Of a DNA stretch of 25,470 bases, positions 966 to 23,673 are shown piece by piece. Below the pieces are notes generated by a model. It saw nothing but the letters and a program-made list of their open reading frames with translations, was not told the origin of the DNA and did not search any database. The translations under genes and the position numbers were made by a program. Position 1 is the first letter of the stretch. The number at the start of each line of letters is the position of its first letter. Source of the DNA: a virus; IMG/VR virus record IMGVR_UViG_3300032053_000467, positions 1 through 25,470 of that record; one strand, given 5' to 3'.

Positions 966-1267
966 GACCAGATACTTTTCAAACAATCTCGGTGACAGAA
1001 TCTGGAATAGCCTACACCGGTCCCTGTGCTTGGGGTGGAGCACTGATCGGGGACAAAGATGGGATCAATAACATGACAGTGACGGTTTACGACGGAATTA
1101 CTGCCGCTGGAACCGAGATCGTTCCAACAACTATCTTCGACGGAACCTCCAAGGGACTCGAGGGTGTAGCCGAGAACCGAAAGATCCAATGTACAACTGG
1201 TATCTATGTCTTGATTGCTGGAAGTGGAACAATCAAAGTAACTGTTCGTTACAAGCCGATAGGATGA
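962..1267 (+). CDS. Small beta-rich protein, 101 aa
   Basis: It starts at ATG 962, overlapping the upstream stop (ATGA), and ends by overlapping the terminase start (ATGA at 1264), so it is tightly coupled on both sides. The sequence is rich in alternating hydrophobic and polar residues (MTVTVYDGIT, GIYVLIAGSGTIKVTVRY) with many Gly and Thr, typical of a small all-beta domain. Many phages carry such 90-130-residue beta proteins as decoration, neck or fibre-tip components. No catalytic motif is visible. Function is inferred only from composition and position. Confidence 0.7.
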   Translation: MRPDTFQTISVTESGIAYTGPCAWGGALIGDKDGINNMTVTVYDGITAAGTEIVPTTIFDGTSKGLEGVAENRKIQCTTGIYVLIAGSGTIKVTVRYKPIG

Positions 1268-3168
1268 CAATGGCTGTGGATGTTCAAAAATTGAACGATG
1301 GGAGTAACGGATGGAAGGTTCCGAAAGGGTATAGGGAGAACCTTGAGTGGCGTGGGATGCTGCTGAAAAGAGCTCAGTCTGATCAAATGTTTCAGTTGAA
1401 GGCGAAGGAACTCTATGAAAGGGACCCGATCTTTGCTTTTAATGCATTTTTCTGGACCTATGATCCGAGAAGAAGGCCTCTACATCATCAACCTTTCCTT
1501 ACTTATGATTATGAGGATGAGTTGATTAGAGAGTTGCAAGGGAGTGTGGAAAGTGGCCAGGATACTGTCATTGAAAAGTCCAGAGACATGGGAATCACTT
1601 GGGTGGTATTGGAACTATTTGAGTGGTTCTGGAGCAAGAGCACTGGAGGTTTCGACTTTCTGGTTGGTAGCAGAATTGCAGATTATGTCGATAAGAAGGG
1701 AGATCCAAGAACACACTTTGAGCGACTTAGGTATAATTTGTACAGACTACCCAAGTGGCTCAGACCAAGAGGATTTGAGCGAGGGAAGCATGATAACTTT
1801 ATGAAGTTGGTGAATCCGGAGACAGGAAATGCGATAACTGGAGAATCGAATAACGAAAGTTTTAGTACGCAAGGAAGATACAGTGGAGTGTTTTTTGATG
1901 AGTTTGCAAAGTGGATGCTTACGGACACGAAGGCTTGGGATAGTGCTGGTGATGCAACTCCTTGTAGGATTGCGGGAAGTACTCCATTTGGGGCAGGAGG
2001 GCAATTTTATAAACTGGCAATGGGAACAGAAAGTGGGATTAAGAAGTTACGCTACCACTGGAGTCAGCATCCAACAAAAAGTCTGGGATTGAACTGTGTT
2101 TGGCCGGCTCCAAATGATTCTGATCGCTCGAGAATGAGAGAGGACTTTAAGGCGGTGGAAAAGTTGACAAGTCCGTGGTATGAGAAGGAGTGTTTTAGGC
2201 GGACTGCAGCGGAAATTGCACAGAATTTGGATATTGACTATGTTGGGGCTGGAAATCCGGTGTTTGATGGAAGGGCGATGGATAGTCTGAAGTTTTATCT
2301 GGGAGTGAAGGATGAGCCGAAAGAGTGGTACAAGATTGATATTGAAGGACTTAAAGCTGAAGCAATTGTCTCTCCGTTTGATGCAGAAGGTTTTCTCGCA
2401 GTGTATAGTGGAAGAAACGAAAAGAGACGGTACAGTATTGGAGTTGATGTTGTTGAAGGGACTGAAGGAGGAGACTTTGCCTGGGTACTTGTGTTTGATA
2501 GAATGTCCAAAAACGTGGCCGCATGTTACTTTAGTCGAATTGATGAGGTAGGGTTAGCAAGGGTTGTTAGGGTTGTAGCGGATCTGTACTCGACTGAGCC
2601 AAATGGAGTTGATGCTCCATGGGTAGGGATTGAGACAACGGGGCCAGGGTTGGCGACTTTTGACCAGTGTATAGGACTGGGGATGACTAATCTATTCATG
2701 GCACCGAGGTATGATGTTGTGAATGGAGGAGTGTCCTGGAGGAAAGGGTGGAGAACGGATCAGTCGAGTAAGAATGAGCTGATTAGTGGAATTCGTGAGT
2801 ATCTGATTGAGCGAAGAGGAGCGCTGAACTCTGCAAGGCTCGTTGGGGAGTTGATGACCTTTGTGAGGACGAAGAGTGGAAAGGCTGAAGCAAAGTCAAG
2901 CTGCCATGATGATGGGGTTATGAGCTTTGGGATTGCGCTTCAGGTGGACATTCTCGCACCTGCGGATGAGGATGCGCTGGAGAAGGTTAGGGTGGAAGAG
3001 GCTCGGACAATGAGCGATCAGGTGGGACTGCCGTTTAGGAAGGATGAGGGGCCGGAAATGAGTCTGCAGGAACGCTGCTTTGCTCATGCGGTAGCGAAAA
3101 GGTTCGAACGGGAGGAAAGGCAGGAGGATCTTTGGGGACAAATTGGCGGAGAGGAGGGAGATGAATGA
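1264..3168 (+). CDS. terL: Terminase large subunit (TerL)
   Basis: This is the ATPase-nuclease motor that pumps DNA into the prohead through the portal. With ATG 1264 (ATGA overlap; ATG 1270 is an alternative) the protein has 634 residues, within the usual TerL range. The degenerate Walker A region is around residues 103-113 (IEKSRDMGITW, the EKSR-GxS/T form typical of terminases). Walker B is VFFDE with Asp212-Glu213. The C-terminal RNase H-like nuclease shows GVDVVEG with Asp395 and an HDDG motif with Asp549-Asp550, the expected metal-binding acids. Reading further upstream to 1189 would overlap the preceding gene and is unlikely. The fifth copy of the palindromic element (1281-1297) lies in its first codons. 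The coding strand is extremely poor in C (3 C in 2401-2460). Confidence 0.95.
   Translation: MTMAVDVQKLNDGSNGWKVPKGYRENLEWRGMLLKRAQSDQMFQLKAKELYERDPIFAFNAFFWTYDPRRRPLHHQPFLTYDYEDELIRELQGSVESGQDTVIEKSRDMGITWVVLELFEWFWSKSTGGFDFLVGSRIADYVDKKGDPRTHFERLRYNLYRLPKWLRPRGFERGKHDNFMKLVNPETGNAITGESNNESFSTQGRYSGVFFDEFAKWMLTDTKAWDSAGDATPCRIAGSTPFGAGGQFYKLAMGTESGIKKLRYHWSQHPTKSLGLNCVWPAPNDSDRSRMREDFKAVEKLTSPWYEKECFRRTAAEIAQNLDIDYVGAGNPVFDGRAMDSLKFYLGVKDEPKEWYKIDIEGLKAEAIVSPFDAEGFLAVYSGRNEKRRYSIGVDVVEGTEGGDFAWVLVFDRMSKNVAACYFSRIDEVGLARVVRVVADLYSTEPNGVDAPWVGIETTGPGLATFDQCIGLGMTNLFMAPRYDVVNGGVSWRKGWRTDQSSKNELISGIREYLIERRGALNSARLVGELMTFVRTKSGKAEAKSSCHDDGVMSFGIALQVDILAPADEDALEKVRVEEARTMSDQVGLPFRKDEGPEMSLQERCFAHAVAKRFEREERQEDLWGQIGGEEGDE
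1281..1297. promoter_or_regulatory. Palindromic element, copy 1 (inside terL 5' end)
   Basis: TGTTCAAAAATTGAACG contains a perfect GTTCAA-AAA-TTGAAC palindrome and fits the spacing of the four intergenic copies (arms of 5, spacer of 7). It differs from the consensus at its last base and lies in coding sequence, so it could be chance. The coding strand becomes sharply C-poor from here (1261-1320: 21 G, 5 C), which supports it. Confidence 0.45.
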
Positions 3169-3356
3169 TAAAGAAGGAGCAAGCCTGTAGTAACTGTAGT
3201 AAAATGAAAGTTTGTTGGTTGATTAGGTGTGTATGGAAGTTAGCAGAAGAGGATACAGATGGTCTACAAGCTTTTACTGATGGAACTGGGATATACCAAG
3301 TAGTTGACTGGTTACTTCAAGGAGTTGGACCAAATTGTACACAGTACCAAAAATAA
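3165..3356 (+). CDS. Small Cys-containing protein, 63 aa
   Basis: ATG 3165 overlaps the terminase stop (ATGA). The protein has a CxxC at Cys8-Cys11, further Cys at 17 and 22, and one more near the C-terminus (Cys58). The first four could bind a metal, though no His is present among them. The middle is acidic, and the end contains a hydrophobic stretch (YQVVDWLLQGVG) too short for a clear membrane helix. Small Cys proteins between terminase and portal genes are frequent in phages and mostly without assigned function. I do not recognise the family. Confidence 0.65.
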   Translation: MIKKEQACSNCSKMKVCWLIRCVWKLAEEDTDGLQAFTDGTGIYQVVDWLLQGVGPNCTQYQK

Positions 3357-3399
3357 AAAGGAGGAGCGGAGAAATGGAAAAGGAAGAAAGGAGGAGCTT

Positions 3400-3693
3400 A
3401 TGTTCTGGAAAAAGGAACTGTTAAAAGGACTGGTTGAGGTTAAGGCGGAACTTGCAAGGCAACAAAGTATTATTGCAGTGTACGATCTGATGATGACAAG
3501 ACAGCAAGTGACAATCGAGAGGCTACTTGATCGGATTCAAGCGGGGAGTTTTAAGGAGTACAAACTGGCTGAAGTTGCAACGGAAGTGAAACTGACTCAG
3601 AGGGACGTTGATGACTTTTATAATCCACTGGCAGATGAGAATCTAGCTGGTATGGCTCTTGAGGTAGGAGAGGGGGAAACTGGTGGCAGCTAA
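3400..3693 (+). CDS. Unknown helical protein between terL and portal, 97 aa
   Basis: I chose ATG 3400 because a strong AGGAGG lies just upstream. An in-frame start at 3304 would overlap the preceding gene by over 50 bases and add a low-complexity Lys/Arg/Glu stretch. Residues 1-55 are predicted to form long amphipathic helices (KKELLKGLVEVKAELARQQ), and residues 60-97 are acidic. The stop overlaps the portal GTG by 11 bases. The function is unknown. The position suggests a head-assembly or packaging accessory. Confidence 0.65.
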   Translation: MFWKKELLKGLVEVKAELARQQSIIAVYDLMMTRQQVTIERLLDRIQAGSFKEYKLAEVATEVKLTQRDVDDFYNPLADENLAGMALEVGEGETGGS

Positions 3694-5629
3694 AACAAAG
3701 GAATGGATCAAGAACCAAGGTGGGAGAAGAAAGGGATCTGGTAATCCAATAGATACAGAATTCTGGCCAATGCTTCAGGAGAAGTATGACACAGGGTTGG
3801 AACTGCGGAGACCATTTGAGGAGAGATGGATTATTAACCTGAGTTTTCTGAGTAACCAGCAGTACGCGTTTTATAATCAGACGGCTGGGATGTTGCAACA
3901 TCTACAGAAGACAAAAGGCAGAGTGAGGATTGTGGATAATAAGATTCTGCCAAGATTCCGAAAGCAGGTCAGTCGACTGATTAGAAACAATCCACGAATG
4001 AGTGTGGTTCCTAACTCGACAGAGCAAAAAGATCTCAAGGCTGCGAAGGTAGGGGATAAGGTACTGAAGAGCTGGTGGAGGAATCGGCAGCTGAAGAAGA
4101 AGGTTCGGGAGTTGGCTGGATGGATCTATGGGTGTGGGAATGGATTTCTGGACGACCGTTGGGACCCGAAGCTGGGACCTGTGCAGTTTGATGGAGAGAC
4201 TGGGCAGTTGGTCTATCTTGGGGATGCAGAGTGCTCTGTGTGGAGTCCGTTTGAAGTGTTAGTTCCAAGTGGAGGGTTAGGCGACACTGACATCCATACA
4301 CTACCCTGGCTGATTAAGATGAAATACAGACCGATTGAGTGGTTTGTAGGGAACTATCCGGAACGTGGAGCAGAGGTTGTTCCGGAGACTAGGGCGATGC
4401 CTTATGTGGATACCTCTACGTTGTTTGGTGTAGTTGGAACAGGTAGAGCTCAGTCGATTGAAGGAGCAACGGAGATTCAACTTTATTTGCAGCCGACACC
4501 GGAGTACCCGAAAGGACTGTATTTGGTCGGAGCAAATGGGGTGATTCTGAGGAGACAGGACTATCCGTTTAATTACTACCATATGGAGCAGTTTAAGGAT
4601 TTGGAAATTCCTGGAGTCTTCTGGGGGCTTAGCACGACTGAGGTTGCGATTTGGTTGCAGAAGGTTTGGAATAGAACGATTTCTGATATTGCTGAGTACA
4701 ATCGAGCTATGGCTAGGGGTAAGTGGATGATCCCCAGGGGAAGCAATATGGAAGTTGCTCCAGACGATACACATGGACAGAGGTTGTTCTACACTCCAGT
4801 ACTTGGGCATGAGCCAAAGATGCTCGATATTAAGGGACTTCCAGAGACGTACCAACAGATTCTTAATGTGATCAGTAATAGCTTTATGGAACTGTACTTT
4901 CAACACGAAGTTACCTCGGGGACGAATAGGTCGGATATCCGCTCTGGGGATATGGTGAGCCTTCTGTTGGAGCAAGACGATGCAGGGAATGTTCCTACTC
5001 ATGCAGTGTTTGAGGAAAGCCTTGAAGCTGTAATGCGTCGGGTTCTTGGAAGGATTCAGAAAGGTTATCAAAATGAGAGAATGCTTAGCGTTATTGGAGG
5101 ACCAGGGAAGGAAATTGAGGTCTTTGCTTTCAAGGGAGCAGACCTTCAGAATAACACTGATGTTTATGTAGCGAAGGAAAGTAGTCTTCCGGACTCGAGA
5201 GCAATTAGACAGGAGAGGATCAAAGGGAACTTTAAGGATACACTCTACGGAGATCCAAATGATCCGAAGGTCAAGGAGCGGGTCCTCCGGATGCTCGAAG
5301 AGGTTCCAGATGAAGTTGAGGACATCTTCAAGGAAAGTCATTTGGATTCTGAGAATGCTCGAATGGAGAATGTCGCGATTATGCAGAATCCGACTGTGGT
5401 GTACCTGGTCAATACCTATGACGATCATCAGGTTCACTTGGAAGAACATCACTATGCGAGGAAGCAACCGGAGTATCAAATGCTGAAGTTTGAGAACCCG
5501 AAGAATTTCGCAATTCTCGAAGTAGGGTTTACTGCACATGAGCGTATGCATCAGAGGTTCCTGGAAGAAGTTATGGCGGCTATGGAAAGGCAGGCAATGA
5601 GACAACAAGGAGGAGCAGAGAATGGATAG
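3683..5629 (+). CDS. Portal protein
   Basis: This is the dodecameric ring at the capsid vertex through which DNA is packaged and released. The protein has 648 residues, close to the large portals of short-tailed phages of the P22 type. The N-terminal 150 residues have the familiar pattern: a helix ending NLSFLSNQQY, a region with IVDNKILPRFRKQVSRLI and NNPRMSVVP, then helices leading to WIYGCGNGFLDDRWDP. Around residues 410-430 are helix residues EVTSGTNRSDIRSGDM, often seen in these portals near the tunnel region. GTG 3683 is the start, preceded by AGGAGAGGGG; no ATG in frame is nearby. The position between terL and scaffold/capsid genes agrees. The family is recognised by pattern, not by a search. 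Confidence 0.88.
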   Translation: MAAKTKEWIKNQGGRRKGSGNPIDTEFWPMLQEKYDTGLELRRPFEERWIINLSFLSNQQYAFYNQTAGMLQHLQKTKGRVRIVDNKILPRFRKQVSRLIRNNPRMSVVPNSTEQKDLKAAKVGDKVLKSWWRNRQLKKKVRELAGWIYGCGNGFLDDRWDPKLGPVQFDGETGQLVYLGDAECSVWSPFEVLVPSGGLGDTDIHTLPWLIKMKYRPIEWFVGNYPERGAEVVPETRAMPYVDTSTLFGVVGTGRAQSIEGATEIQLYLQPTPEYPKGLYLVGANGVILRRQDYPFNYYHMEQFKDLEIPGVFWGLSTTEVAIWLQKVWNRTISDIAEYNRAMARGKWMIPRGSNMEVAPDDTHGQRLFYTPVLGHEPKMLDIKGLPETYQQILNVISNSFMELYFQHEVTSGTNRSDIRSGDMVSLLLEQDDAGNVPTHAVFEESLEAVMRRVLGRIQKGYQNERMLSVIGGPGKEIEVFAFKGADLQNNTDVYVAKESSLPDSRAIRQERIKGNFKDTLYGDPNDPKVKERVLRMLEEVPDEVEDIFKESHLDSENARMENVAIMQNPTVVYLVNTYDDHQVHLEEHHYARKQPEYQMLKFENPKNFAILEVGFTAHERMHQRFLEEVMAAMERQAMRQQGGAENG

Positions 5630-5921
5630 CAAAGGAGTGAAAAAGGTTGAGTTGGTTCAAATTCTGACACTGATGGAACGAATAACTGGACATTGGAATG
5701 CTGTAGTTGAGGGATTGGAAGGAGTTAAGAAGGAATGGGACTCAATGCAGGAACTGTTATTGACCGTTTCGAGGGAGGAAATTGAATCATCTCCGCTAGA
5801 GGTACAAAAAGCTGTAGGAAGGTTTAGGAAGGCTAAGTTTGAAGTAATGCTAGGAAGATTTGTCACTCACTACAAGGCCTTTGGAGGTCTTGAGGCTATG
5901 AAAGTTAAAAAGGAGGAGTAA
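5622..5921 (+). CDS. Unknown helical protein, 99 aa
   Basis: ATG 5622 overlaps the portal stop by 8 bases and follows AAGGAGGAGCAGAG. The protein is highly charged and almost entirely predicted helical (LVQILTLMERITGHWNAVVEGLEGVKKEWDS), with a C-terminus rich in Lys and Glu. It contains no Cys and no membrane segment. It sits between portal and scaffold candidate, so a role in head assembly is possible, but nothing in the sequence identifies one. Confidence 0.7.
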   Translation: MDSKGVKKVELVQILTLMERITGHWNAVVEGLEGVKKEWDSMQELLLTVSREEIESSPLEVQKAVGRFRKAKFEVMLGRFVTHYKAFGGLEAMKVKKEE

Positions 5922-5925
5922 AGTA

Positions 5926-6768
5926 ATGGGAGAAGTAACGGTTAAAGTCAAAGATGAAAAGGGAATAGAAGTCGAAAAGACTCTCAAGGACGCTGATGTG
6001 CAGAAGGTTCTTGAAGGTCACGGAGAACTGGCGAATAGGCTTGCCACAGTTGAGGGTAATGCTGGGAAGCTTAAAGTTGTCCAGGACTTTATGGGAAGAA
6101 TTGGGTTAAGCCCAGATGAACTTATTCAGAATGCAGATGGAGCGTTTACGCTGATTAGTAAACTTGTCGAGGATGGGATTATTGATCCAAGTGGTAAAGT
6201 GCTTGTAAAGAAGGGTACTGGAGGGGAATCTCTCCCAAAGAAGAAGGACATGGATGATCTTGAGACACTGTTGAAGGAAGACTCTAAAGGTCTAACCGGA
6301 GAGGCTAAGGTAGCTGCACTGGTGAATAGAGCACTGGAATCTACTCTGAAGCCCTTTGCAAAGACCTTGGATGAAATCACAACGGTGCAGACAGGTATGC
6401 TCCGGAACCAATGGGAACAGAGAATCCTCAAAGAGTATCCAAATCTGAGCACGGAGGATGTACGGAAGGTTTTTGGTGAGGCAGCAGGGAAACCGAAGCT
6501 TGGAATTCTTGAAATTGCCAAAAGCGTTTCTGATGCAAAATCCAAAGATGAAGCAACCCTTAGAGCAACACATGCTAAGGAATTTGGAGTGGATCTGAAG
6601 GCCTTTGATGAGAACAAACTACTGGAAAAGGGACCTGAGGGTGGAGCAGGGGTGATGTTTAAGGGAAAAACCTTCACCCTTTCGAAGAGAAGGGAATCCC
6701 TCCCTGGGTTTGTTGATCCGACTAAGGCCACTAGAGAATACCTCAAGAAGACTGGGGTAATTCGGTAA
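5926..6768 (+). CDS. Candidate scaffolding protein, 280 aa
   Basis: A strong AAGGAGGAG lies ahead of ATG 5926. The protein is charged, predicted mainly helical, and lies directly before the major capsid gene in the usual place of a scaffolding protein. It opens with a short beta-like segment (VTVKVKDEKGIEVEK), continues with acidic and basic helices in the middle (residues 95-170, KKKDMDDLETLLKEDSKG) and ends in a basic tail (TLSKRRES, YLKKTGVIR) that could contact capsid protein. There is no protease motif. Family membership is inferred from composition, length and position, since scaffolds diverge quickly. Confidence 0.65.
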   Translation: MGEVTVKVKDEKGIEVEKTLKDADVQKVLEGHGELANRLATVEGNAGKLKVVQDFMGRIGLSPDELIQNADGAFTLISKLVEDGIIDPSGKVLVKKGTGGESLPKKKDMDDLETLLKEDSKGLTGEAKVAALVNRALESTLKPFAKTLDEITTVQTGMLRNQWEQRILKEYPNLSTEDVRKVFGEAAGKPKLGILEIAKSVSDAKSKDEATLRATHAKEFGVDLKAFDENKLLEKGPEGGAGVMFKGKTFTLSKRRESLPGFVDPTKATREYLKKTGVIR

Positions 6769-6778
6769 GAGGAACAAA

Positions 6779-8140
6779 ATGGCAACTGCAACTTTGAGTA
6801 CTTATGATGAAGTTTTGAAGACGTTTTACCTCCCGGGGATTCAGGATGCACTGAATCATGACACGATTCTTGCTGACCTGATCGAGGTGAATGAAACAGA
6901 CGTCAGTGGTAAAAACGCGACTATTGAAACCCACTACGGCCGCTCGACTGGGACCAAGTGGACAACCGACGGTGGGACACTGCCGACGGCGACTTACCAA
7001 AAATACAAAACCTGCACAGTGCCGATGAAGTACGGTTATGGACAGATTCAGTTCAGCGGTCCGACTCTTCGGGCGACTAAGGACGAGAAAGGTGCTTACA
7101 TTCGAGTGATGGACTCGGAAATCCGAGGTATTGTCGATGACTATAAGAAAGAAGTCAACCGGCAGTATTTTGGAACTGGTTATGGAATTATTGGGCGCTG
7201 GAGAGGTGGAACATCTGGTACAAGTTACACCATCCAGAAAAAGTACACTGGTAACTCAGCAGGTGGTGATAATTGGGGAAGTACCTTCGGTGCAAAGTAC
7301 ATGATTGAGCGAGGTGATGTTTCAGCGGTTGATTTGACATCTACTACGACTTATGTAGTTGATGCTTCGAATCTGGCGGTTACTGCTGTGACCAAAGGTG
7401 CTACTTATGACACGATCACCTGTACTGATCCGAGTTCATCTGAAACCACTGGATCTTTCTACATTCGACCAGAAGGTTTAGGCGCTCACGCAGCGAGTGG
7501 AGCTCATCGAGTTGAGATGATGGGTCTTGGAGGGATTATTGGTGACGATGATCTGGATAACATTGCCTGCGGAGCAACTTATGGTGTTGGACTTAGTAGC
7601 TATAATGATCCACTTCAGGGACTTGATATCGCAACTTATCCCTGGTTTGTCGCAGTGACAGATTTTCACGCAAGTGGTCGGTTTGCTGGTCAGAGAGCTT
7701 TGGATCTCAATCTTATGCAGACAATGTTTGACATGGTCGAAGAGCGAGCTGGCAAAGACTACGGCCCAAGCCTGCTTATGACTACGAGGGCAGTCCGTAG
7801 AGAGTACATCGAACTCTGCAAAGCCGACGGGATGAAGATTATCACCATGGAGCTCGACGGTGGTTGGACCGCTGTTGATTACAATGGAGTCCCAATGGTA
7901 GTGGACAATGATGCTCTCGACGGTGAGATCCAGTTCATCACGATGAAAGACCTGCAACTCTATCGGATGAGTGACTACTCCTGGATGGATCAGGACGGCG
8001 CAGTTCTTTCACGTGTCACTGGCTACGATGCTTACGAGGCGACCTTCTATCGTTACGCTGAGCTTGGATGCAAGAATCGGAGAACCCAAGGAGTTCTTGG
8101 TTCACTGAGCTATACCAAGAGCACAAATGAAGGTTATTAA
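6779..8140 (+). CDS. Major capsid protein
   Basis: The 453-residue product follows the scaffold candidate by 10 bases with AGAGGAAC ahead of ATG 6779. The N-terminal sequence (STYDEVLKTFYLPGIQDALNH, then a conserved-looking YGRSTGTKWTTDGG and VPMKYGYGQIQFSGP) resembles HK97-fold coat proteins of N4 gp56-like and related groups. Residues 120-150 (EIRGIVDDYKKEVNRQYF) would be the long spine helix. A Gly/Ser/Thr-rich insertion at about residues 140-170 may be a surface loop. The last third (MTTRAVRREYIELCKADG, then beta strands) fits the P and A domains. It is the last gene before a 12-bp hairpin and palindromic-element copy 2. The fold assignment is from recognition. Confidence 0.88.
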   Translation: MATATLSTYDEVLKTFYLPGIQDALNHDTILADLIEVNETDVSGKNATIETHYGRSTGTKWTTDGGTLPTATYQKYKTCTVPMKYGYGQIQFSGPTLRATKDEKGAYIRVMDSEIRGIVDDYKKEVNRQYFGTGYGIIGRWRGGTSGTSYTIQKKYTGNSAGGDNWGSTFGAKYMIERGDVSAVDLTSTTTYVVDASNLAVTAVTKGATYDTITCTDPSSSETTGSFYIRPEGLGAHAASGAHRVEMMGLGGIIGDDDLDNIACGATYGVGLSSYNDPLQGLDIATYPWFVAVTDFHASGRFAGQRALDLNLMQTMFDMVEERAGKDYGPSLLMTTRAVRREYIELCKADGMKIITMELDGGWTAVDYNGVPMVVDNDALDGEIQFITMKDLQLYRMSDYSWMDQDGAVLSRVTGYDAYEATFYRYAELGCKNRRTQGVLGSLSYTKSTNEGY

Positions 8141-8192: not shown

Positions 8193-8222
8193 GGATAACC
8201 CATGAGGGTGGAGGGATGGAGG

Positions 8223-9245: not shown

Positions 9246-9270
9246 CTTCTAATCTAGGCAGGAGTAAAAA

Positions 9271-9624: not shown

Positions 9625-9632
9625 CCTCTTTC

Positions 9633-9649: not shown

Positions 9650-9651
9650 CT

Positions 9652-9695: not shown

Positions 9696-9714
9696 TTCTA
9701 AAGGAGACACAAAC

Positions 9715-11557: not shown

Positions 11558-11607
11558 CGATTGTGGGAAAGGCAGCGAGGAGGAAAACTGAAAGGAGAGT
11601 AAGGAAA

Positions 11608-15914: not shown

Positions 15915-15971
15915 GGCAAGACTGCTCTTCCGGAGGAAGTGCAAAACATTTTATTTTAAGGAGGAACGACA

Positions 15972-16655
15972 ATGGCACTTGGAGAAATTGGACCTTTTCA
16001 TCCCGCGGAAACTACTTATCAAGATCCTAATGGATATGGTAATGCTCTTCGACTTCGTGCAACTCAAAGTGCGGCTTATCTTACCGCTATGGATTCATTC
16101 TACGAGCAGCTCGATGAAACCATTCGAGAGTTCAACGCTACACTTGTCTTTAAGGAAACAGAACTTGCCCAAGTCAAAGGTCTCACTGAGGAGCAGATAG
16201 GTCTTAGCAAACGTCAGCTTGACATCAGCGAGGAACAGTACAAATCCGATCTCGCTCTTCGGCAGCAAGCTCTCAAGGAGCAAACAGCTTACCAGACGGG
16301 AATGCTTGCAGTTGAGAACAAGAAGGTCAACGCTGCTGCAGGGACAAACTACCTCGGCAGTCAAGCTGCATCCGACAAAGCCTTTGACTTTCTTAAAACA
16401 GCTCAAAAGGCCAACCTGGATGCTGCTGCAGCAAGTCAAGCTGCTATGATGAAGTATCTCATTGGAGGTTCTACCAGGAATGCAACTAGTAGTCCTACCT
16501 ACACTGGGACAACTACTCCTCAAAGTAAAGAGGTCAATTATGCTCTAGCTAGCAATCCTGCTTATGATCCAAGGTATGATTTTAATTATTCTACAGGTAA
16601 ATATGCATCTGATGAACCTACTTATGGTAACATTGATGAATCTATTTGGGTTTAG
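15972..16655 (+). CDS. Putative internal virion protein, coiled coil, 227 aa
   Basis: TAAGGAGGAAC precedes ATG 15972. Residues 25-155 form a nearly unbroken Ala/Gln/Glu-rich helix (LRLRATQSAAYLTAMDSFYE, KRQLDISEEQYKSDLALRQQ, LKTAQKANLDAAAASQAAMM). Residues 165-227 are Ser/Thr/Asn/Tyr-rich and probably extended. T7-like phages place a small helical internal protein (gp14, about 196 residues) before two larger core proteins; here 227, 421 and 1055 residues follow one another in the same order. The homology is not shown; role in DNA ejection is inferred from composition and order. Confidence 0.6.
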   Translation: MALGEIGPFHPAETTYQDPNGYGNALRLRATQSAAYLTAMDSFYEQLDETIREFNATLVFKETELAQVKGLTEEQIGLSKRQLDISEEQYKSDLALRQQALKEQTAYQTGMLAVENKKVNAAAGTNYLGSQAASDKAFDFLKTAQKANLDAAAASQAAMMKYLIGGSTRNATSSPTYTGTTTPQSKEVNYALASNPAYDPRYDFNYSTGKYASDEPTYGNIDESIWV

Positions 16656-16668: not shown

Positions 16669-16685
16669 TGTCCAATTTTTGAACA
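16669..16685. promoter_or_regulatory. Palindromic element, copy 4
   Basis: TGTCCAATTTTTGAACA lies in a 49-base gap, 19 bases before ATG 16705. Its arms do not pair at one position (C against A), so conservation across copies fits a DNA-level site better than an RNA hairpin. G/C counts change from 11/15 (16501-16560) to 23/12 (16741-16800). Confidence 0.65.
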
Positions 16686-16704: not shown

Positions 16705-17970
16705 ATGCCTGATCAGAATGATATGACTGCGATAGATATTGTCTCGAGGGTAGCTAGTGCTGCAGGAGCAATGCAACGACTGCAGGGAGCTGGACAGGAA
16801 CAAGAAAATGCTCAGATGCGCGGGATGCTCTTGGCGAGGGAGCTGAGCGGACCGAGCGAACAGGATAAGTTTCAATTCGAGCAGGGGAAGTTTGTGGAGC
16901 AGCAGAGAGCAGAACAGGTTAAGTACGCCCTGACTAAGTTCACTGAACTAAGCAAGGAAAGTTCTCCAGCGACGAAGGCTGTGATGATGGGGCATATGGA
17001 GAATATATGGTTTATGATGAGTCCGGTGGAGAGGGCAACCTTAGGGATGGTTTATGCTCATAGTCCGCTGAATCCGATTGAGCAGAAGGCTACCTACTGG
17101 GACAGTACTATGAGGATTCCACAGGTGAATGCTAAGGCGAGTGAAGACCCTTATGCCTACGGGACACAGATATTTAATCTGGATGATTATAATCAGCAAA
17201 GAGCTAATTTTGTCTCTGGAGTGCCTATTCAGAAAAGAAAGATCATCGGAGTTGCTGATGGAGTGTTCGCTGTTCGAGGGGATGACGACAAGGTAAGCAT
17301 TATGCGCTCGGAGGATCTTGCAGGAGAGCAGTTAGGGAAGAAGCATGGGAAGAGTTTTGGGTCAATTCTGGCTAATAATGGTCTTGTCTTTGGGGAAAAG
17401 CAAACTGTTATGGTCGGAGGAGTGCTAAGTGAAGCGGTTAGTGTCTACAATGCTATTGAAGGGAAACCTGTAGGGACAAGGGTTACTCCGACTGCTGGAG
17501 CAGTTGCGACGCTGGATAAGGAACAGCAGGACCTGCAGGATCTGCTTGTCTCTTGGGTGACAAAGGACATTGGAGGAAAGACCCAGGGAAGCAGGGTTTA
17601 TACTGCGGTGCAGAAGATGCTAGATAATGGAGCCTCGATGGAAGAGGCTATAGAATATGTGAAGGAAATCTATCCAGGGAGGAATTTTAGGATTGAGGGA
17701 GCTGGAAAGTTCAGAGGTATTTCAAGCCTACTCCCTTGGAACTGGGGTGACGCTTATGTAGAGGGACCAAAGGAGAGGATTATTTCCTGGCCAGGGATAG
17801 CAATAAAACTGAATGCAAAGAACGGCTCGAAGGTTGGGTACTATGATGCGAGGTCAGGAAAGGTCTACGGTGGAAGTGGAAAGATGATAGCCGATAACTT
17901 GGAAGAACTACAGGCCTATATTGCTACGAGAACTATTGAGGAATTGGACAAAGAAGCGGAGGGTAAGTAA
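16705..17970 (+). CDS. Putative internal virion (ejection) protein, 421 aa
   Basis: AAGAGGAAAAC precedes ATG 16705. Residues 10-75 are a Gln/Glu/Ala-rich helix, probably a coiled coil (VASAAGAMQRLQGAGQEQEN). Residues 95-135 are Met-rich and partly hydrophobic (MGHMENIWFMMSPVERATLG). Residues 170-260 are beta-rich, and the C-terminus returns to helix with a Lys/Glu end. No lysozyme or transglycosylase motif is evident. The gene is joined by TAATG overlap to the 1055-residue gene, in the position of the middle core protein of T7-type ejection machines. The role is inferred from order and size. Confidence 0.6.
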   Translation: MPDQNDMTAIDIVSRVASAAGAMQRLQGAGQEQENAQMRGMLLARELSGPSEQDKFQFEQGKFVEQQRAEQVKYALTKFTELSKESSPATKAVMMGHMENIWFMMSPVERATLGMVYAHSPLNPIEQKATYWDSTMRIPQVNAKASEDPYAYGTQIFNLDDYNQQRANFVSGVPIQKRKIIGVADGVFAVRGDDDKVSIMRSEDLAGEQLGKKHGKSFGSILANNGLVFGEKQTVMVGGVLSEAVSVYNAIEGKPVGTRVTPTAGAVATLDKEQQDLQDLLVSWVTKDIGGKTQGSRVYTAVQKMLDNGASMEEAIEYVKEIYPGRNFRIEGAGKFRGISSLLPWNWGDAYVEGPKERIISWPGIAIKLNAKNGSKVGYYDARSGKVYGGSGKMIADNLEELQAYIATRTIEELDKEAEGK

Positions 17971-20900
17971 TGACTATTGATCTGGCTGGAGCAGGGCTTG
18001 AGGATAGCAAAGGAGCAATGCAACTGGAGGCTTGGAAGAGTCCCTTGGCTGGAAGTGGACTTGAGACCTTGGGGAAGGCACCAAAAGCCAAGGAAGAGAC
18101 TGAATGGGACTATCCGCTGAGGGACTGGGAAGCTGAAGTTGCTGCGAAGTATAATAACACCTACGCGGTGGCGAGGACGCTTGCTGACTTTGTGCCTTAT
18201 GCAGGACTTGCTATCTTTCCTTCTGCTCGAGATGCTTATGAAAGGAAGAGCGCTGGAGGGCAGACACTGGAACTTGTGCTTGAGGCTATGGGTCTGCTGC
18301 CAGCTGTAGTCATTGGTAAGGGTCTCAAGATTGCAGCTGGAGGAGTTGAAAGTGTCTTGGGGCTGGCAGCTAAGCCTGTGTGGAAGATGTTTCCGAAGAA
18401 GTTTCAGCCGATTCCTGATGCAACAGTTATGGCTAATCCTTTCGCTGATGGACTGATGAGTGATGTAATTAGGTACCAACATAAGACTGTAGCTGAGCGA
18501 CTGATGGGAAAGTACTCACTGGAAGCTGATGAAGCTGCTGCGGTGATTGAAGGGAAGACTACGGTCTGGAGACCAGCCGGGAGGTCTGGGGCTTGGACTC
18601 CAGAGAGGACAGAACTGTTGGGGAATCTGTACACGAAGGATAATACTCTCAAGCAAGGAGTCCTTGACGACATTCATACTTGGATTAGGCCAAGGGAATA
18701 TCAGGAACTCACACATTACATCAATCAGGCCAATGGGCTGTTCTACAAGATTACTGCAGGAACTGAGTACAAAAACATTGATGTCCTTCGAGCTGGAGCG
18801 ACTAGGATCTACGGTCCAGCTGGAAAGGACATGAGATTTGATAACATGACTCTGGATGAACTCGGCCAGGTGATGAATGATGTTCTTCAGCATGGAACAG
18901 CCTATCGGAGGACAATGGACATCAGCGGATGGGCCTACCTTCGACCTGATCGCAAGGTCTTTGGTGTCATGGATCTGCCGTGGAATGCTACTAATGGGTT
19001 CTTCAATCCAGTTAAGGGACTCCTCAACACAAAGAAAATCGCTGAGACTCAATACGTTCGTGAGTGGCAGGGAATGCTTGCCGGACGGAAGTTTGAAGGC
19101 AAACCTTTGCTTGAAATGACTACAAATAGCAAAGGCGAAGTGAAGCTTACGGAACACTATTCTCGAAAAGAATTCGACAACGCAGGAAAGCTTGCAACTG
19201 ACATAGATCTTGCTCAACGGTCAGGAAAGCCTATGGCTGAGATCCAGGCACTCATGGATGTTGCTCCTCCGAAGGTTCAAGCCATAGCGAAGACAATGTG
19301 GGACTGGCACGACAAGATGTATGCGGGATATTTTGCTGGTAAGGTTCCACAACTCTTTGAGAAGGCAGGACTGACAACTGAGGGTCGAGCAGCAATTGAA
19401 GGGATTATGTCTCGGCCAGGTGGAGCAGTCGAGGCAGTCAACGGAGCATTGAAGGCTGGGAACAATCTAGACTACAATGGAAAGCTGACTGTAATCAATC
19501 AAAATCTAGAATCACTGAAGTCTCTTGCGAGTGAGGAGAATATCAACTGGTTCACAACCAAGGCAATCAAGGATCTTTCGAAAGATGAATTCAAGGGACT
19601 TGTTGGAAAGCTTAAAGACCTAAAAGCTAACCTTACCCCTCGAACTGACAAGAGTCCTGACGGCTTCACTGGGTATCTTGAGAACTATACTGCTCGAATT
19701 CCGAAGAATGTCCTCAAGCCCTGGACTGCAGAAGGCGGTCTCCCTAGCGGCATGAAGGCCTCCTTTGAGCATCCAGCTCTTGTAGAGGAGTTAGGCTACG
19801 AAGTTAAGACAGATATTCCTAGTATCATTGGAGCAAGAGCTCGAGCACAAGCTAATGCTCTTCATCTATTCCCTTACATTGATGATTACAAAGCCGCTGT
19901 CTCCAAGTATCCTCCAATCCTCAAGGAGTATGCTACACACTGGCTCAATCGACAGTTAGGAATTACGAGTCCTGCGGATCTATCAACTGCTCGATTCCTA
20001 AGTCGCTTCTCCCTCAAGGGTTGGGATGACCGAAGAATCAACAACGTAGCCTCGACGATTACTGACCTGATGTACCTTGGTGGAATTGGGTTCAAACCGT
20101 TCTCTGCGATGAGAAACTACATCCAATACGTCCTCATGACCCCAGCGGAGCTCGGTGGAATCAAGGATATTGTCTGGCTTGCTCCAGGAATCAAGAAGGC
20201 TATGGAACCAGGACACCGAGAGTATCTTCGCTCAATCGGAGCAATCGCTGAGTACACCCCGGACATTACCTTCAACCTCGAGGTCAGCAAGTATGGTCGA
20301 GGCTTCCTAGATAAGACTAGGGACTTCGGCATGTGGATGTTTAAGGCCTCGGACTACCATGTCCGACTTATGACCGGAGGTGCAGCTGTAGCCAAATGGG
20401 ATTACTACTTTGCCCGCCTCGGCAAAGATGGAATCATCCCTAACAACAAACTCGATGCTTTCCGCTCCAAGATCGGATTTGGAATGCGCGAGCCTGTCGT
20501 TCGAAACGAGCTCGACTCTTTTGTCCGCATTGGTACTCCTGAGGCCTACCTCGAAGCCAAGAAGGTCTTCATCAAGGACGTAATCGCTGATTCTCAGTAC
20601 CTCTACGGCAAAGAGGAAAGCCCACTCATCACCTACAAATGGGGGGCTCTGGGTCGGACTACTCTTGTCTTCCAGTCCTGGTGGATGAACTATGCAGACA
20701 CTCTCGGCAAGTGGCTTCTCAGGACTCCTGAGGTCCCTGGTCGTGCAGTCTCGAAAACTAACGAGCGACTCTTTGCCTTCATGCTTTCAAGCGCCCTTGC
20801 CTTTGAGATCATGCAACCCTTGTGGGGCACAAAACGCTCAGCGACTTCAGTCATGACTGGACCCTTACCCTTGAGCCTTAGCATTCCACCTGCCTGGAAG

Positions 20901-21137
20901 CCTGTCTTTGACAGTCTCCGTACTGTCACCGATACAGCAGCCCTCCTTACCCCTTGGGGAGACTTGGAGCAAACCCGGAACCAGATGATCCAACTCATCA
21001 AGGACAGTGCAATCTTTATCCCTGGAGGAATTCAAGCTTACCTAAGTATCCAAGGAGCCAAGAAAGAAGGTTTCCCTGGAGTTCTCAAATCAATCATCGG
21101 TTACAGATCACCAAAGAAAGAGGAGGAAAACAAATGA
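17970..21137 (+). CDS. Large putative ejection protein, 1055 aa
   Basis: The largest gene of the window, coupled to its neighbour by TAATG. Hydrophobic segments lie near residues 95-130 (LELVLEAMGLLPAVVIGKGL, AAGGVESVLGLAAK) and near 930 (LFAFMLSSALAFEIMQPLWG), compatible with insertion into the host envelope. The rest is helical, and the C-terminus is basic. Giant polypeptides at this place in short-tailed phages (T7 gp16 type) leave the capsid with the DNA and form a channel; a tape-measure role is less likely because the coiled-coil length and tail-tube genes are missing. Codons change within the gene: Arg is mainly AGG/AGA to about base 18650, and mainly CGN after about 18780. Confidence 0.6.
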   Translation: MTIDLAGAGLEDSKGAMQLEAWKSPLAGSGLETLGKAPKAKEETEWDYPLRDWEAEVAAKYNNTYAVARTLADFVPYAGLAIFPSARDAYERKSAGGQTLELVLEAMGLLPAVVIGKGLKIAAGGVESVLGLAAKPVWKMFPKKFQPIPDATVMANPFADGLMSDVIRYQHKTVAERLMGKYSLEADEAAAVIEGKTTVWRPAGRSGAWTPERTELLGNLYTKDNTLKQGVLDDIHTWIRPREYQELTHYINQANGLFYKITAGTEYKNIDVLRAGATRIYGPAGKDMRFDNMTLDELGQVMNDVLQHGTAYRRTMDISGWAYLRPDRKVFGVMDLPWNATNGFFNPVKGLLNTKKIAETQYVREWQGMLAGRKFEGKPLLEMTTNSKGEVKLTEHYSRKEFDNAGKLATDIDLAQRSGKPMAEIQALMDVAPPKVQAIAKTMWDWHDKMYAGYFAGKVPQLFEKAGLTTEGRAAIEGIMSRPGGAVEAVNGALKAGNNLDYNGKLTVINQNLESLKSLASEENINWFTTKAIKDLSKDEFKGLVGKLKDLKANLTPRTDKSPDGFTGYLENYTARIPKNVLKPWTAEGGLPSGMKASFEHPALVEELGYEVKTDIPSIIGARARAQANALHLFPYIDDYKAAVSKYPPILKEYATHWLNRQLGITSPADLSTARFLSRFSLKGWDDRRINNVASTITDLMYLGGIGFKPFSAMRNYIQYVLMTPAELGGIKDIVWLAPGIKKAMEPGHREYLRSIGAIAEYTPDITFNLEVSKYGRGFLDKTRDFGMWMFKASDYHVRLMTGGAAVAKWDYYFARLGKDGIIPNNKLDAFRSKIGFGMREPVVRNELDSFVRIGTPEAYLEAKKVFIKDVIADSQYLYGKEESPLITYKWGALGRTTLVFQSWWMNYADTLGKWLLRTPEVPGRAVSKTNERLFAFMLSSALAFEIMQPLWGTKRSATSVMTGPLPLSLSIPPAWKPVFDSLRTVTDTAALLTPWGDLEQTRNQMIQLIKDSAIFIPGGIQAYLSIQGAKKEGFPGVLKSIIGYRSPKKEEENK

Positions 21138-21508
21138 ACGATCAAGTAATCACAGTAATTAAACTTTTCAATGCTGAATCAATCGCCAGTGGTTCTACTT
21201 CTTCTCAACCTGCTGAAGGTATCGACCTTCAACGCTTTGCTCAGAATGGGTTTTTCAGTCTTCAGTACACAATTACTGGAACTGGAACCCTCAAACTTGA
21301 GTACAATCTTAGCCTTGACGGAGCAAATTGGATTGAACCTACCAGTTCCACTGACATCGGTTCAAGTCTAACTGCATCCACAGGCCCAGGTTCCGATGGC
21401 AAAGACATTCTCACCTTCTCCCCTGAGCTCGCGAGATTCCTCAAAATCAAAGCCACTGGCTCTGGAGGTAGTGCTGCAGTGCTCACTCTCTGGATTGCAA
21501 TGCAGTAA
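21134..21508 (+). CDS. Small beta-sandwich virion protein, 124 aa
   Basis: ATG 21134 overlaps the preceding stop (ATGA), with GAGGAGGAAAAC ahead. The protein is all-beta: FSLQYTITGTGTLKLEYNLS, SLDGANWIEP, then DILTFSPELARFLKIKATGS and a final LTLWIAMQ strand. Small phage proteins of this kind, with an SLDGxNW motif, occur among virion genes and are probably neck, decoration or fibre-tip components. There is no catalytic motif. The specific role is unknown. Confidence 0.75.
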   Translation: MNDQVITVIKLFNAESIASGSTSSQPAEGIDLQRFAQNGFFSLQYTITGTGTLKLEYNLSLDGANWIEPTSSTDIGSSLTASTGPGSDGKDILTFSPELARFLKIKATGSGGSAAVLTLWIAMQ

Positions 21509-21509: not shown

Positions 21510-21526
21510 CGTTCAATTTTCGAACA
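21510..21526. promoter_or_regulatory. Palindromic element, copy 5
   Basis: CGTTCAATTTTCGAACA fills half of a 33-base gap and ends 15 bases before ATG 21542, ahead of the ribosome binding site GGAGGTTGAGG. The coding strand changes from 10 G/20 C (21361-21420) to 21 G/9 C (21541-21600). Confidence 0.65.
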
Positions 21527-21541: not shown

Positions 21542-22309
21542 ATGCTTAAGAGCAAACATGGATGGAGTGGGAACTACCGCTGGGGAAGGGACAATCGTTG
21601 GAGCAATGATGCCTGGGACTACAATGCACTCCATAGTACAATCTGGGGACCAACAGTGTTGGGGTTAAGTTTTCTGAATGGAATTGCTTTTGCAAAGATC
21701 CAAGGAGCTACCCTTGCTGCCTACACTGGAACTGCAGGGACAAGTACTCCTTACAAACTAGTCCTTCATGACTCTGCAGGTGTTGCTGCTTCTGGTTTTA
21801 TCGCAAACGCAGATGCTGCGGAAGGATTAGATACTGATCTTGTTACAGTTGGAAACTTTGCTTCTGACAATATTGCTTGGGTCAAAGGAACTGGTTGGTC
21901 TATTGGTAGTGGTGTAGCAACTAAAGGTGCTGGAGCTGGAGTGCTGATTGAACAAGACATCAGCGCTGTAGCTAATACTCTCTACAAGATTGTCTTTGAT
22001 CTGACTCGAACTGCTGGAACTTTTTGGCCTTCCTTTGGTTCTACTACAGCTATAGCAGTACTTGCCGCAAGTGCAACTTATACTTACTATGTTAACTGCG
22101 GTGGAACTGATAGTAAAATCACTTTCAATAACGATTCTGCTTTTCGAGGAACTCTTGACAATGTAGTAGTCCAACAGGTTCTTCATGTTGGTGCTACAGG
22201 AAATCACATCGTCAGCGCAAAAGCTGGTTCAACGAGAAATTGGACCTCAATCGGGACAGGGTTTAACTACAATTCCTCAGCTTATCGAGCTGAGATTCGA
22301 AGGGCATAA
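21542..22309 (+). CDS. Tail fibre / carbohydrate-binding-like protein, 255 aa
   Basis: ATG 21542 follows GGAGGTTGAGG. Residues 1-36 hold six Trp with Arg, Asn and Asp (GWSGNYRWGRDNRWSNDAWD), an unusual aromatic head that might be the virion attachment part. Residues 105-215 have the look of a jelly-roll carbohydrate-binding module: GWSIGSGVATKGAGAG, LIEQDISAVANTLYKIVFDL, then YTYYVNCGGTDSKITF and a closing RGTLDNVVVQQV strand. Such modules are frequent in phage fibres. A role in contact with host surface sugars is inferred. The C-terminus is short and basic. Confidence 0.65.
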   Translation: MLKSKHGWSGNYRWGRDNRWSNDAWDYNALHSTIWGPTVLGLSFLNGIAFAKIQGATLAAYTGTAGTSTPYKLVLHDSAGVAASGFIANADAAEGLDTDLVTVGNFASDNIAWVKGTGWSIGSGVATKGAGAGVLIEQDISAVANTLYKIVFDLTRTAGTFWPSFGSTTAIAVLAASATYTYYVNCGGTDSKITFNNDSAFRGTLDNVVVQQVLHVGATGNHIVSAKAGSTRNWTSIGTGFNYNSSAYRAEIRRA

Positions 22310-22326
22310 ACTGGAGATCGAATCTA

Positions 22327-22692
22327 ATGACTACTGAACAGGAACAGGAATTATGCACTCGACAATGTAGATATCACGAGGAGATTATGGCAAGAGTAAA
22401 CGGTTCTATAGCAAAGTCAAGTATTAAATGGATTGCTACAATTTTTGCTATTCCTGTCCTTTTTGCAATCCTCGTCACCTATGCCTTTGTGACTAGTGCA
22501 GACTATCGGTATGGTTCAATAGTAACTGCGACTCAGAATCAGACCAATATTAGACTACTAGACGAAAGGACTCTAAACCTGAAGGGTGAAATTGTCAGCC
22601 TTCAACTCTCTATAGCAGGTGATATTTTAGGGATAAAAAATGACCTAAAGGAAATTACCAAAGAACTCAGGAATAATCGTAAAAAGGAGTAG
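22327..22692 (+). CDS. One-TM lysis-cassette protein (holin or inner spanin candidate), 121 aa
   Basis: TGGAG precedes ATG 22327. A single transmembrane helix covers residues 34-55 (KWIATIFAIPVLFAILVTYAFV), with a charged N-terminus holding Cys10, Cys14 and His17. After the helix, residues 75-121 form a probable coiled coil with a basic end. The gene stands directly before the lysozyme, so it is probably part of lysis: an inner spanin, a holin or a holin regulator. The long soluble C-terminal helix fits an inner spanin, but no outer spanin was found, so this stays open. Confidence 0.6.
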   Translation: MTTEQEQELCTRQCRYHEEIMARVNGSIAKSSIKWIATIFAIPVLFAILVTYAFVTSADYRYGSIVTATQNQTNIRLLDERTLNLKGEIVSLQLSIAGDILGIKNDLKEITKELRNNRKKE

Positions 22693-22695
22693 CAA

Positions 22696-23109
22696 ATGGA
22701 ATTGCTGATTAAATCTATCAAACGAAATGAAGGATTCAGAGATCGTGTTTATCTGGATAGTGAAAACAAACTAACCTGTGGATGGGGACATTACTTATGG
22801 GTTGGATCAAAAGTACCTTTGGTTGCCTGCGAAGAGTTTTTCAAGCAGGATCTTGCGGATGCAGTGAGCTCTTTTCGGACGATACAGTCGTATTTGAGAA
22901 GACAATTGAATCCTGCCAGAGCGAGAATAATCACCGAGATGATCTTCAATATGAATCTTGCCAAGGTGCTCAAGTTCCAAAAGATGTGGATGGCAATAGA
23001 GTTACGAGACTTTGACACAGCAGCAAAGGAAATGCTCAACTCAAAGTGGGCTGAGCAAACCAAAGGGCGAGCTATTGAGCTTGCTGAAATTATGAGAAAG
23101 GGGGAATAA
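22696..23109 (+). CDS. Endolysin, T4-type lysozyme (glycoside hydrolase family 24)
   Basis: It cuts the peptidoglycan glycan strand at the end of infection. The catalytic triad has the exact T4 spacing: Glu12, Asp21 and Thr27 in the stretch NEGFRDRVYLDSENKLTCGWGH (T4: Glu11, Asp20, Thr26). The C-terminal lobe shows ARARIITEMIFNMNLAKVLKF, matching the helix pattern of the family. At 137 residues it is shorter than T4 lysozyme (164). There is no signal peptide or SAR-type anchor, so release to the wall depends on a holin, which the next gene probably supplies. AAGGAG lies 7 bases before ATG 22696. Confidence 0.92.
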   Translation: MELLIKSIKRNEGFRDRVYLDSENKLTCGWGHYLWVGSKVPLVACEEFFKQDLADAVSSFRTIQSYLRRQLNPARARIITEMIFNMNLAKVLKFQKMWMAIELRDFDTAAKEMLNSKWAEQTKGRAIELAEIMRKGE

Positions 23110-23112
23110 ATT

Positions 23113-23673
23113 ATGGACTGGAAAGATATAGCTGGAACAGTAGCAAAGGCAGCTCCCTTGCTTGGCGGTGCCCTTGGTGGGCCTGTCGGCGTTGGTATCG
23201 GAGGGTTGGTTGCTTTGATTAGTTCAGCGTTTGGTTTGACCCCAGCTGAAACAACCCCGGAGAAGATCAGTCAGTTGCTCGCCACTGATCCGGAAGCTAC
23301 GATTAAGATAGCTGAGCTCGAAGCAAACAATAAGATTGAACTCCAGAAGTTCGTTTTGATGCAGAGTTGTCTGGCACTGCAAGAGAAACAAGCTGAGTTA
23401 GCAGATACGGACAGTGCAAGGAAGAGAGAAACTGCGGTAGTACAGGCCACAGGCAAGCTGGATATTAATTTATATCTTCTGGCCTGGACTATCGTGCTAG
23501 GTTTTTTCGGTCTTACCGCTTTGCTTATGTATGTCAAACTGCCTATGGGTCAGACTGAGGTAATCTTTATGTTATTCGGTGGTCTTGTTTCGGGGTTCAG
23601 CACAGTGCTGGGATACTTTTTTGGATCCAGTCGGGGCAGTCTCATAAAGAGTCAACTACTCGCGACGAAGTAA
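23113..23673 (+). CDS. Three-TM holin family protein, 186 aa
   Basis: ATG 23113 is 3 bases after the lysozyme stop with GGGGG ahead. Residues 12-41 are a Gly-rich hydrophobic segment (LLGGALGGPVGVGIGGLVAL), followed by a charged helical middle (residues 46-115, ELEANNKIELQKF) and two clear membrane helices at 119-141 and 149-171. This arrangement matches the GTA/phage three-TM holin family. It would form pores in the inner membrane that let the lysozyme reach the wall. The Ser/Lys-rich C-terminus is cytoplasmic or periplasmic depending on topology. It is the last plus-strand gene before the convergent hairpin. Confidence 0.82.
   Translation: MDWKDIAGTVAKAAPLLGGALGGPVGVGIGGLVALISSAFGLTPAETTPEKISQLLATDPEATIKIAELEANNKIELQKFVLMQSCLALQEKQAELADTDSARKRETAVVQATGKLDINLYLLAWTIVLGFFGLTALLMYVKLPMGQTEVIFMLFGGLVSGFSTVLGYFFGSSRGSLIKSQLLATK

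What the first reader, a model, noticed from the sequence alone, without database searches (positions are those of the whole stretch)
1261..23673. Sawtooth GC skew that resets at each palindromic element
Hand counts in 60-base blocks (G/C on the coding strand): before copy 1 12/19 (841), after it 21/5 (1261), 22/3 (2401), 26/6 (4081), falling to 14/18 (6961); at copy 2 17/13 (8041) to 23/7 (8221); at copy 3 11/15 (10621) to 23/10 (10741); at copy 4 11/15 (16501) to 23/12 (16741), 21/8 (18301), falling to 9/18 (20581); at copy 5 10/20 (21361) to 21/9 (21541). The depleted base is C. The minus operon shows the same drift in its own direction: 18/6 at its start (25321-25380), 16/14 further in (24241-24300). 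That argues for a transcription-linked cause, such as C loss on the exposed non-template strand near promoters or selection on mRNA, over a replication-fork cause. I sampled blocks and did not compute the full curve; the block after copy 5 falls only partly.
Basis: partly seen in the sequence, partly recalled or inferred. Interest (0 to 1): 0.8.

Follow-up and report, generated by a model that had tools for sequence, protein, structure and literature searches.

The report
Phage operons with sawtooth G/C bias
In this short-tailed phage and its relatives, genes avoid C and favour G most strongly when much of their transcription unit still lies downstream, and the bias falls away until the next palindromic control site resets it, which looks like a record of pressure to keep long messages from being cut short.

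Summary
The sawtooth is real. At fourfold-degenerate sites the skew jumps upward at all five palindromes (+0.44 to +1.05, against +0.02 at other gene starts). Unsupervised segmentation of third positions puts its four breaks 33-58 bp from elements 1, 3, 4 and 5.

It is clade-wide. Seventeen contigs, the window included, carry palindromes of the same geometry but often different sequence at operon starts. The step is +0.22 at 96 elements against -0.04 at 495 other gene starts. Two distant phages have neither palindromes nor teeth.

With gene-family and genome-strand effects removed, skew follows the distance REMAINING to the unit's end (+0.056 per kb, bootstrap 0.026-0.080), not distance from the element (-0.007, interval includes 0). 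C falls and G rises with T flat, unlike C-to-T loss on an exposed strand.

Best explanation (inferred): selection for C-poor, G-rich RNA against premature, probably Rho-type, termination, scaled by how much RNA is still to be made. A multi-origin replication model cannot be excluded.

The parts
1281..1297 (+). palindromic element copy 1, TGTTCAAAAATTGAACG, inside the first codons of the terminase gene
   Evidence: the same position in the 85%-identical relative L005 holds the perfect palindrome TGTTCAAAATTCGAACA while the surrounding protein residues differ
8169..8185 (+). element copy 2, TGTTCAAAATTCGGACA, between the major capsid gene and 8202
10682..10698 (+). element copy 3, TGTTCGATTTTTGGACA, 13 bp before the start codon at 10712
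16669..16685 (+). element copy 4, TGTCCAATTTTTGAACA, 19 bp before the start codon at 16705
21510..21526 (+). element copy 5, CGTTCAATTTTCGAACA, 15 bp before the start codon at 21542
   Evidence: reset weaker than at the other copies
1264..8140 (+). tooth 1: terminase large subunit (1264-3168), portal (3683-5629), 5926-6768, major capsid protein (6779-8140). Fourfold C 0.08 / G 0.36 in the terminase gene, C 0.18 / G 0.21 in the capsid gene
8202..10678 (+). tooth 2: fourfold C 0.14 / G 0.24, then C 0.23 / G 0.15
10712..16655 (+). tooth 3: fourfold C 0.08 / G 0.25, then C 0.19 / G 0.06
16705..21508 (+). tooth 4: fourfold C 0.12 / G 0.31, then C 0.28 / G 0.04; total skew falls smoothly inside the single 1055-codon gene 17970-21137
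21542..23673 (+). unit 5, lysis region with a phage lysozyme at 22696-23109; weak reset, not a clean tooth
23943..25172 (-). DUF3987-type primase/helicase gene of the convergent early operon

Best explanation
The five palindromes mark the starts of transcription units. Within each unit the RNA is kept C-poor and G-rich in proportion to how much RNA is still to be transcribed. The pressure relaxes towards the end of the unit, and the next element starts a new unit, so the skew resets. The most likely cause is selection on the nascent RNA against premature termination, most plausibly by host Rho, which recognises stretches where C exceeds G. A termination event early in a unit costs all downstream genes and a late one costs little, so the selection is graded. 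Shown: the resets, their clade-wide link to the elements, the dependence on remaining rather than elapsed distance, and the C-for-G spectrum. Inferred: that the elements are promoters or operators, that selection rather than mutation is the cause, and that Rho is the agent.
For: Remaining distance predicts fourfold skew with gene-family and genome-strand fixed effects (251 genes, 32 families; +0.062 per kb, F 54.6). In the genome bootstrap the remaining-distance slope is 0.056 [0.026, 0.080] and the distance-from-start slope is -0.007 [-0.029, 0.016]; all 15 genomes have positive slopes; placebo elements at random gene starts give 0.009 (sd 0.007) against 0.065 observed. The same gene changes with place: terminase is +0.63 with 6.0 kb remaining in the window, and -0.28 to +0.30 in eight relatives with at most 2.1 kb remaining. 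C is avoided and G favoured in every synonymous choice, including Ser TCN to AGY and Arg CGN to AGR, and at codon positions 1 and 2, while T is flat. 150-nt windows with excess C are almost absent 5-8 kb before the end (0.002) and commonest near the end (0.04). Terminator-like sites are no commoner than in shuffles and none lies between a unit's last gene and elements 2-5. Published precedent: purine-rich genes protect RNA from Rho, whose targets are stretches over 150 nt with C above G (PMC13323073).
Against: Early operons in several relatives (G006, G007, G015) are C-rich on their coding strand throughout, which Rho avoidance alone does not explain. A and T do not shift, whereas Bacillus Rho avoidance favours both purines. 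The host, and whether it has an active Rho or uncoupled transcription, is unknown. Five contigs (G001, G002, G010, G011, G013) show little or no step. The direct test for compensation between synonymous and non-synonymous C was weak (r -0.05 to -0.11). Remaining distance and fractional position between elements fit almost equally well.
Confidence: 0.45

Rival explanations
1. Another selection on messenger RNA composition gives the same graded signal, for example keeping long messages unstructured, matching ribosome or ribonuclease behaviour, or a phage-specific termination or processing factor rather than Rho.
For: The same data as for the best explanation; low C with high G lowers G-C pairing; the Rho link itself is untested here.
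Against: No specific factor is indicated. Expression-level codon adaptation does not fit: the capsid gene is intermediate while the replication genes (primase, polymerase) are the most C-biased.
Confidence: 0.2
2. Each element is, or lies beside, a replication start. Fork direction then shifts gradually between neighbouring elements and mutation bias writes a jump at each start and a near-linear decline between them, as in the skew domains of vertebrate genomes.
For: Sharp upward jumps, near-linear decline and sign reversal before the next element. The fractional-position model fits nearly as well as remaining distance (dAIC -57.4 against -60.1 with family effects). Several relatives show a genome-long strand asymmetry as well.
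Against: Within tandem units remaining distance is preferred (dAIC -57.4 against -45.9). Units ending in convergence fall about as far as tandem ones (-0.15 against -0.22), where this model predicts a return only to the mid-value. It would need about ten origins in 45 kb. A and T show no matching change.
Confidence: 0.12
3. Transcription-linked mutation: C is deaminated on the exposed non-template strand most often near promoters.
For: C is the base most clearly lost, including C against T at two-fold sites. The polymerase of relative G006 carries a uracil-glycosylase domain, so deamination may matter to this phage.
Against: Distance from the start adds nothing once remaining distance is fitted. 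Fourfold T does not rise where C falls, and G rises instead. C-poorness extends over several kilobases and the skew reverses sign.
Confidence: 0.12
4. Mosaic history: the teeth are blocks of genes acquired with different codon usage, bounded by the elements.
For: Elements lie at module boundaries; phages are mosaic.
Against: The gradient persists within single genes (mean slope -0.019 in synonymous C-G residual per kb remaining, se 0.007, 75 genes) and after removing gene-family effects.
Confidence: 0.04

Closest known systems
Purine bias of bacterial genes driven by Rho avoidance during runaway transcription (Dierksheide et al. 2026, PMC13323073)
   Same: Coding strand kept low in C relative to G; affects synonymous codons in many amino acids; Rho targets are stretches over 150 nt with C above G.
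   Different: There the bias is described for genes as a whole and involves A and T too. Here it is a gradient set by position in the transcription unit, concerns only C and G, and is in phages. A search of that paper's main text for 'phage' and 'gradient' at word starts gave nothing (bacteriophages are mentioned as foreign elements).
Replication-linked sawtooth skew domains of vertebrate genomes (PMC3320577 and related papers found; shape recalled, papers not read)
   Same: Sharp upward jump, near-linear decline, sign reversal, next jump.
   Different: Scale of kilobases rather than about a megabase; jumps at short palindromes that start gene units; decline follows remaining unit length slightly better than fractional position.
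GC skew at transcription starts in plants and fungi (PMC555766; title and abstract only)
   Same: Strand bias tied to the start of a transcript.
   Different: Here the reference point is the downstream end of a multi-gene unit, the signal runs for kilobases and is synonymous-site driven.
Mycobacteriophage stoperators (PMC9283540, abstract) and cluster K start-associated sequences SAS/ESAS (PMC3203893)
   Same: Short repeats at many gene starts across a phage genome; ESAS contains 17-bp inverted repeats upstream of starts.
   Different: Stoperators and SAS are asymmetric. The present element is a single 17-bp palindrome with outer arms in some relatives, at the first gene of each unit, and its sequence differs between related phages while the geometry is kept.

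Membership tests
Rho-avoidance composition bias (PMC13323073) | coding strand has C below G, with stretches over 150 nt of excess C excluded from messages | tested here: met
   excess C 0.002 at 5-8 kb before unit end, 0.04 at 300-600 nt before it
Rho-avoidance composition bias (PMC13323073) | both purines favoured and T avoided | tested here: not met
   fourfold A and T essentially flat
Rho-avoidance composition bias (PMC13323073) | bias follows gene orientation, not replication strand | tested here: inconclusive
   steps follow gene orientation in both directions in G006, G019 and G022, but early operons of some relatives are C-rich on the coding strand
Rho-avoidance composition bias (PMC13323073) | bias lost or termination relieved without Rho | not testable with these tools
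   host unknown; needs experiment
Transcription-associated mutation (C to T on non-template strand) | effect decays with distance from the promoter | tested here: not met
   distance-from-start slope -0.007 [-0.029, 0.016] with remaining distance in the model
Transcription-associated mutation (C to T on non-template strand) | T rises as C falls at fourfold sites | tested here: not met
   T slope t = -0.5, G slope t = +6.5
Multi-origin replication skew domains | upward jump at each candidate origin and near-linear decline between them | tested here: met
Multi-origin replication skew domains | skew at convergent unit ends returns only to mid-value | tested here: inconclusive
   -0.15 at convergent and -0.22 at tandem ends; only 34 genes in convergent units
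Stoperator | asymmetric repressor site in transcription direction that stops elongation | tested here: not met
   palindromic, inner pairs 81% Watson-Crick; stopping itself not tested
SAS/ESAS of cluster K phages | 13-bp asymmetric repeat at the translation start, with paired 17-bp inverted repeats and a variable spacer | tested here: not met
   single palindrome of fixed geometry at unit starts, no companion 13-bp repeat seen; definition

The most novel reading that the evidence does not exclude
Phage genomes carry a quantitative record of the cost of premature termination: C-versus-G use at silent sites is set by how many kilobases of the transcription unit remain, so unit boundaries and the strength of termination pressure can be read from DNA alone, and a fast-evolving palindromic operator sets those boundaries across a whole phage clade.
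Probability: 0.4. Interest if true: 0.82.

Novelty: new variant of a known kind. Interest (0 to 1): 0.7.

Why it matters
Composition skews in small genomes are usually read as traces of replication or mutation. Here the same gene changes its silent-site C and G use according to how much of its transcription unit lies downstream. If caused by termination pressure, it would give a sequence-only readout of operon structure and of polarity cost, would extend the recent Rho-avoidance idea from whole genes to position in an operon, and would explain part of phage codon usage without translation. If caused by replication, it would mean about ten replication starts per 45-kb phage, which would be more surprising still.

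Tried and rejected
(1) RNA hairpin for the element: inner mismatches are split evenly between A-C (44) and G-T (43) over 112 elements, so the symmetry is at the DNA level. (2) Mosaic codon usage: rejected by within-gene gradients and family fixed effects. (3) Expression-driven codon adaptation: rejected by the order of skew among genes. (4) Simple C deamination near promoters: rejected by spectrum and by the distance variable. (5) Compensation test for selection: weak, not relied on. (6) Separation of replication from transcription through convergent units: too few genes. (7) Sigma-70 promoter and intrinsic-terminator scans gave nothing clearly above shuffles. (8) Nucleotide search of the phage collection with the window: no match. 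(9) Host identification through bacterial genome contigs: only one unclassified metagenome assembly. (10) Literature searches for a prior report of operon-position skew in phages found none, within an open-access library.
Full report
WHAT THE WINDOW IS. The window is a 25,470-base IMG/VR virus record from a phage with terminase large subunit, P22-type portal, major capsid protein, lysozyme and, on the minus strand, a DUF3987-type primase/helicase. Its capsid protein is about 25% identical to those of Arthrobacter and Microbacterium phages. A nucleotide search with window 1189-9100 found nothing in the phage collection.

THE OBSERVATION. The elements are 17-bp palindromes near TGTTCAAWWTTYGAACA. 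Fourfold-degenerate sites, which do not change the protein, jump at all five: mean step 0.68 in 1-kb windows against 0.02 at 19 other gene starts. Composition in the kilobase before and after copy 4, for example, goes from C 0.25, G 0.08 to C 0.11, G 0.34. A segmentation that knows nothing of the elements breaks third-position skew at 1252, 10723, 16631 and 21460, within 60 bp of copies 1, 3, 4 and 5; copy 2 appears only in a richer model, and fourfold sites alone give two breaks that are off the elements. Copy 5 resets only partly and another rise occurs near 22,280.

THE ELEMENT IS CLADE-WIDE. Searches with the capsid protein and its alignment gave some thirty viral contigs. Seventeen contigs, the window included, carry a palindrome of the same geometry, with a different sequence in many of them: GTTCAAAWTTTGAAC, GGTTCAT...ATGAACC, TGATTCA...TGAATCA, ATCCATTWAATGGAT, TTTCGTTWAACGAAA and others. 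Most lie 20-50 bp before the first gene of a run of genes, on both strands, early and late. Mismatches inside the palindrome are split evenly between A-C and G-T, so it is a DNA site rather than an RNA hairpin, and some relatives add outer arms for a total near 31 bp. In the 85%-identical relative L005 the same spot in the terminase gene holds a perfect palindrome while neighbouring codons differ. That the sites are promoters or operators is inferred from position.

THE TEETH ARE CLADE-WIDE. Over 96 elements the fourfold step is +0.223, against -0.044 at 495 other gene starts (stratified permutation p below 0.0002). It is strong in the window, G019, G024, G006 and G022 and absent or weak in G001, G002, G010, G011 and G013. 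Two distant relatives with similar gene order, Jasmine and Shocker, have neither the palindromes nor a gradient.

WHAT SETS THE SKEW. For 414 genes I related fourfold skew to distance from the upstream element and to distance remaining to the unit's end. With gene family and genome-strand removed (251 genes), remaining distance has slope +0.062 per kb, F 54.6. With both variables in the model the genome bootstrap gives 0.056 [0.026, 0.080] for remaining and -0.007 [-0.029, 0.016] for elapsed distance. Fifteen of fifteen genomes are positive, and pseudo-elements placed at random gene starts give 0.009 with sd 0.007. Terminase illustrates it: +0.63 with 6 kb to go in the window, -0.28 to +0.30 in eight relatives where it lies within 2.1 kb of the end. 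The slope exists inside single genes too.

WHICH BASES. C falls and G rises with remaining distance; A and T are nearly flat at fourfold sites. Two-fold C against T falls and G against A rises. Leucine moves from CTN to TTR, arginine from CGN to AGR, serine from TCN to AGY, and codon positions 1 and 2 also lose C. Deamination of C on an exposed strand predicts a matching rise of T, which is not seen.

MECHANISM. The pattern is what selection against premature termination would give if its strength depends on what is still to be transcribed. Rho targets are long stretches with C above G, and purine-rich coding strands protect messages from Rho where polymerase outruns ribosomes (PMC13323073). 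Excess-C windows are nearly absent far from unit ends and commonest near them, and no intrinsic terminator was found between a unit's last gene and elements 2-5. Against this: A and T are not involved, early operons of several relatives are C-rich throughout, the host is unknown, and the compensation test was weak.

THE MAIN RIVAL. Fractional position between elements fits nearly as well as remaining distance with family effects (dAIC -57.4 and -60.1); within tandem units remaining distance does better (-57.4 against -45.9), and convergent units fall about as low as tandem ones. I give replication 0.12.

LIMITS. Gene calls in relatives are mechanical, contigs are related and not independent, elements were found by motif, and unit ends are assumed to be the next element or the first opposing gene. 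The 'responder' split used was made; the main regressions use all genomes.

VERDICT.

Noticed in passing
relatives G001-G024 (for example L029 9524-9540, L063 near 12112, L074 near 3790): A palindromic site of constant geometry but different sequence sits at the starts of early and late gene runs in 17 related phage contigs; its half-sites diverge between relatives (GTTCAA, GTTCAT, ATTCA, CCAT, TCGT). Looks like a fast-evolving operator system.
   Followed up: partly
L029 13999-15504 (-), G006; homologues in 11 contigs: Conserved early gene encoding a ParB N-terminal domain with the GERR motif and an apparent helix-turn-helix, fused to an N6/N4 DNA methylase. A candidate for the protein that binds the palindromes; not tested.
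   Followed up: partly
L029 10736-13225 (-), G006: Family A DNA polymerase with an N-terminal uracil-DNA-glycosylase domain and a 3'-5' exonuclease domain in one protein.
   Followed up: no
window 22280: An upward step in third-position skew as large as those at the elements, with no palindrome; start of the lysis genes.
   Followed up: no
window 8162-8192: Copy 2 sits in a longer inverted repeat (AGTGGGTGTTC...GGACACCCACT) right after the capsid gene, without a T run.
   Followed up: no
window 10-258: Three imperfect 27-bp repeats encoding ILVDTGSTL at the left edge, inside a truncated gene, perhaps a repetitive fibre or coiled-coil protein.
   Followed up: no
G006, G007, G015 early operons: Coding strands of replication genes are strongly C-rich at fourfold sites (skew about -0.4 to -0.76), opposite to late genes; a second, genome-long strand asymmetry under the teeth.
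   Followed up: partly
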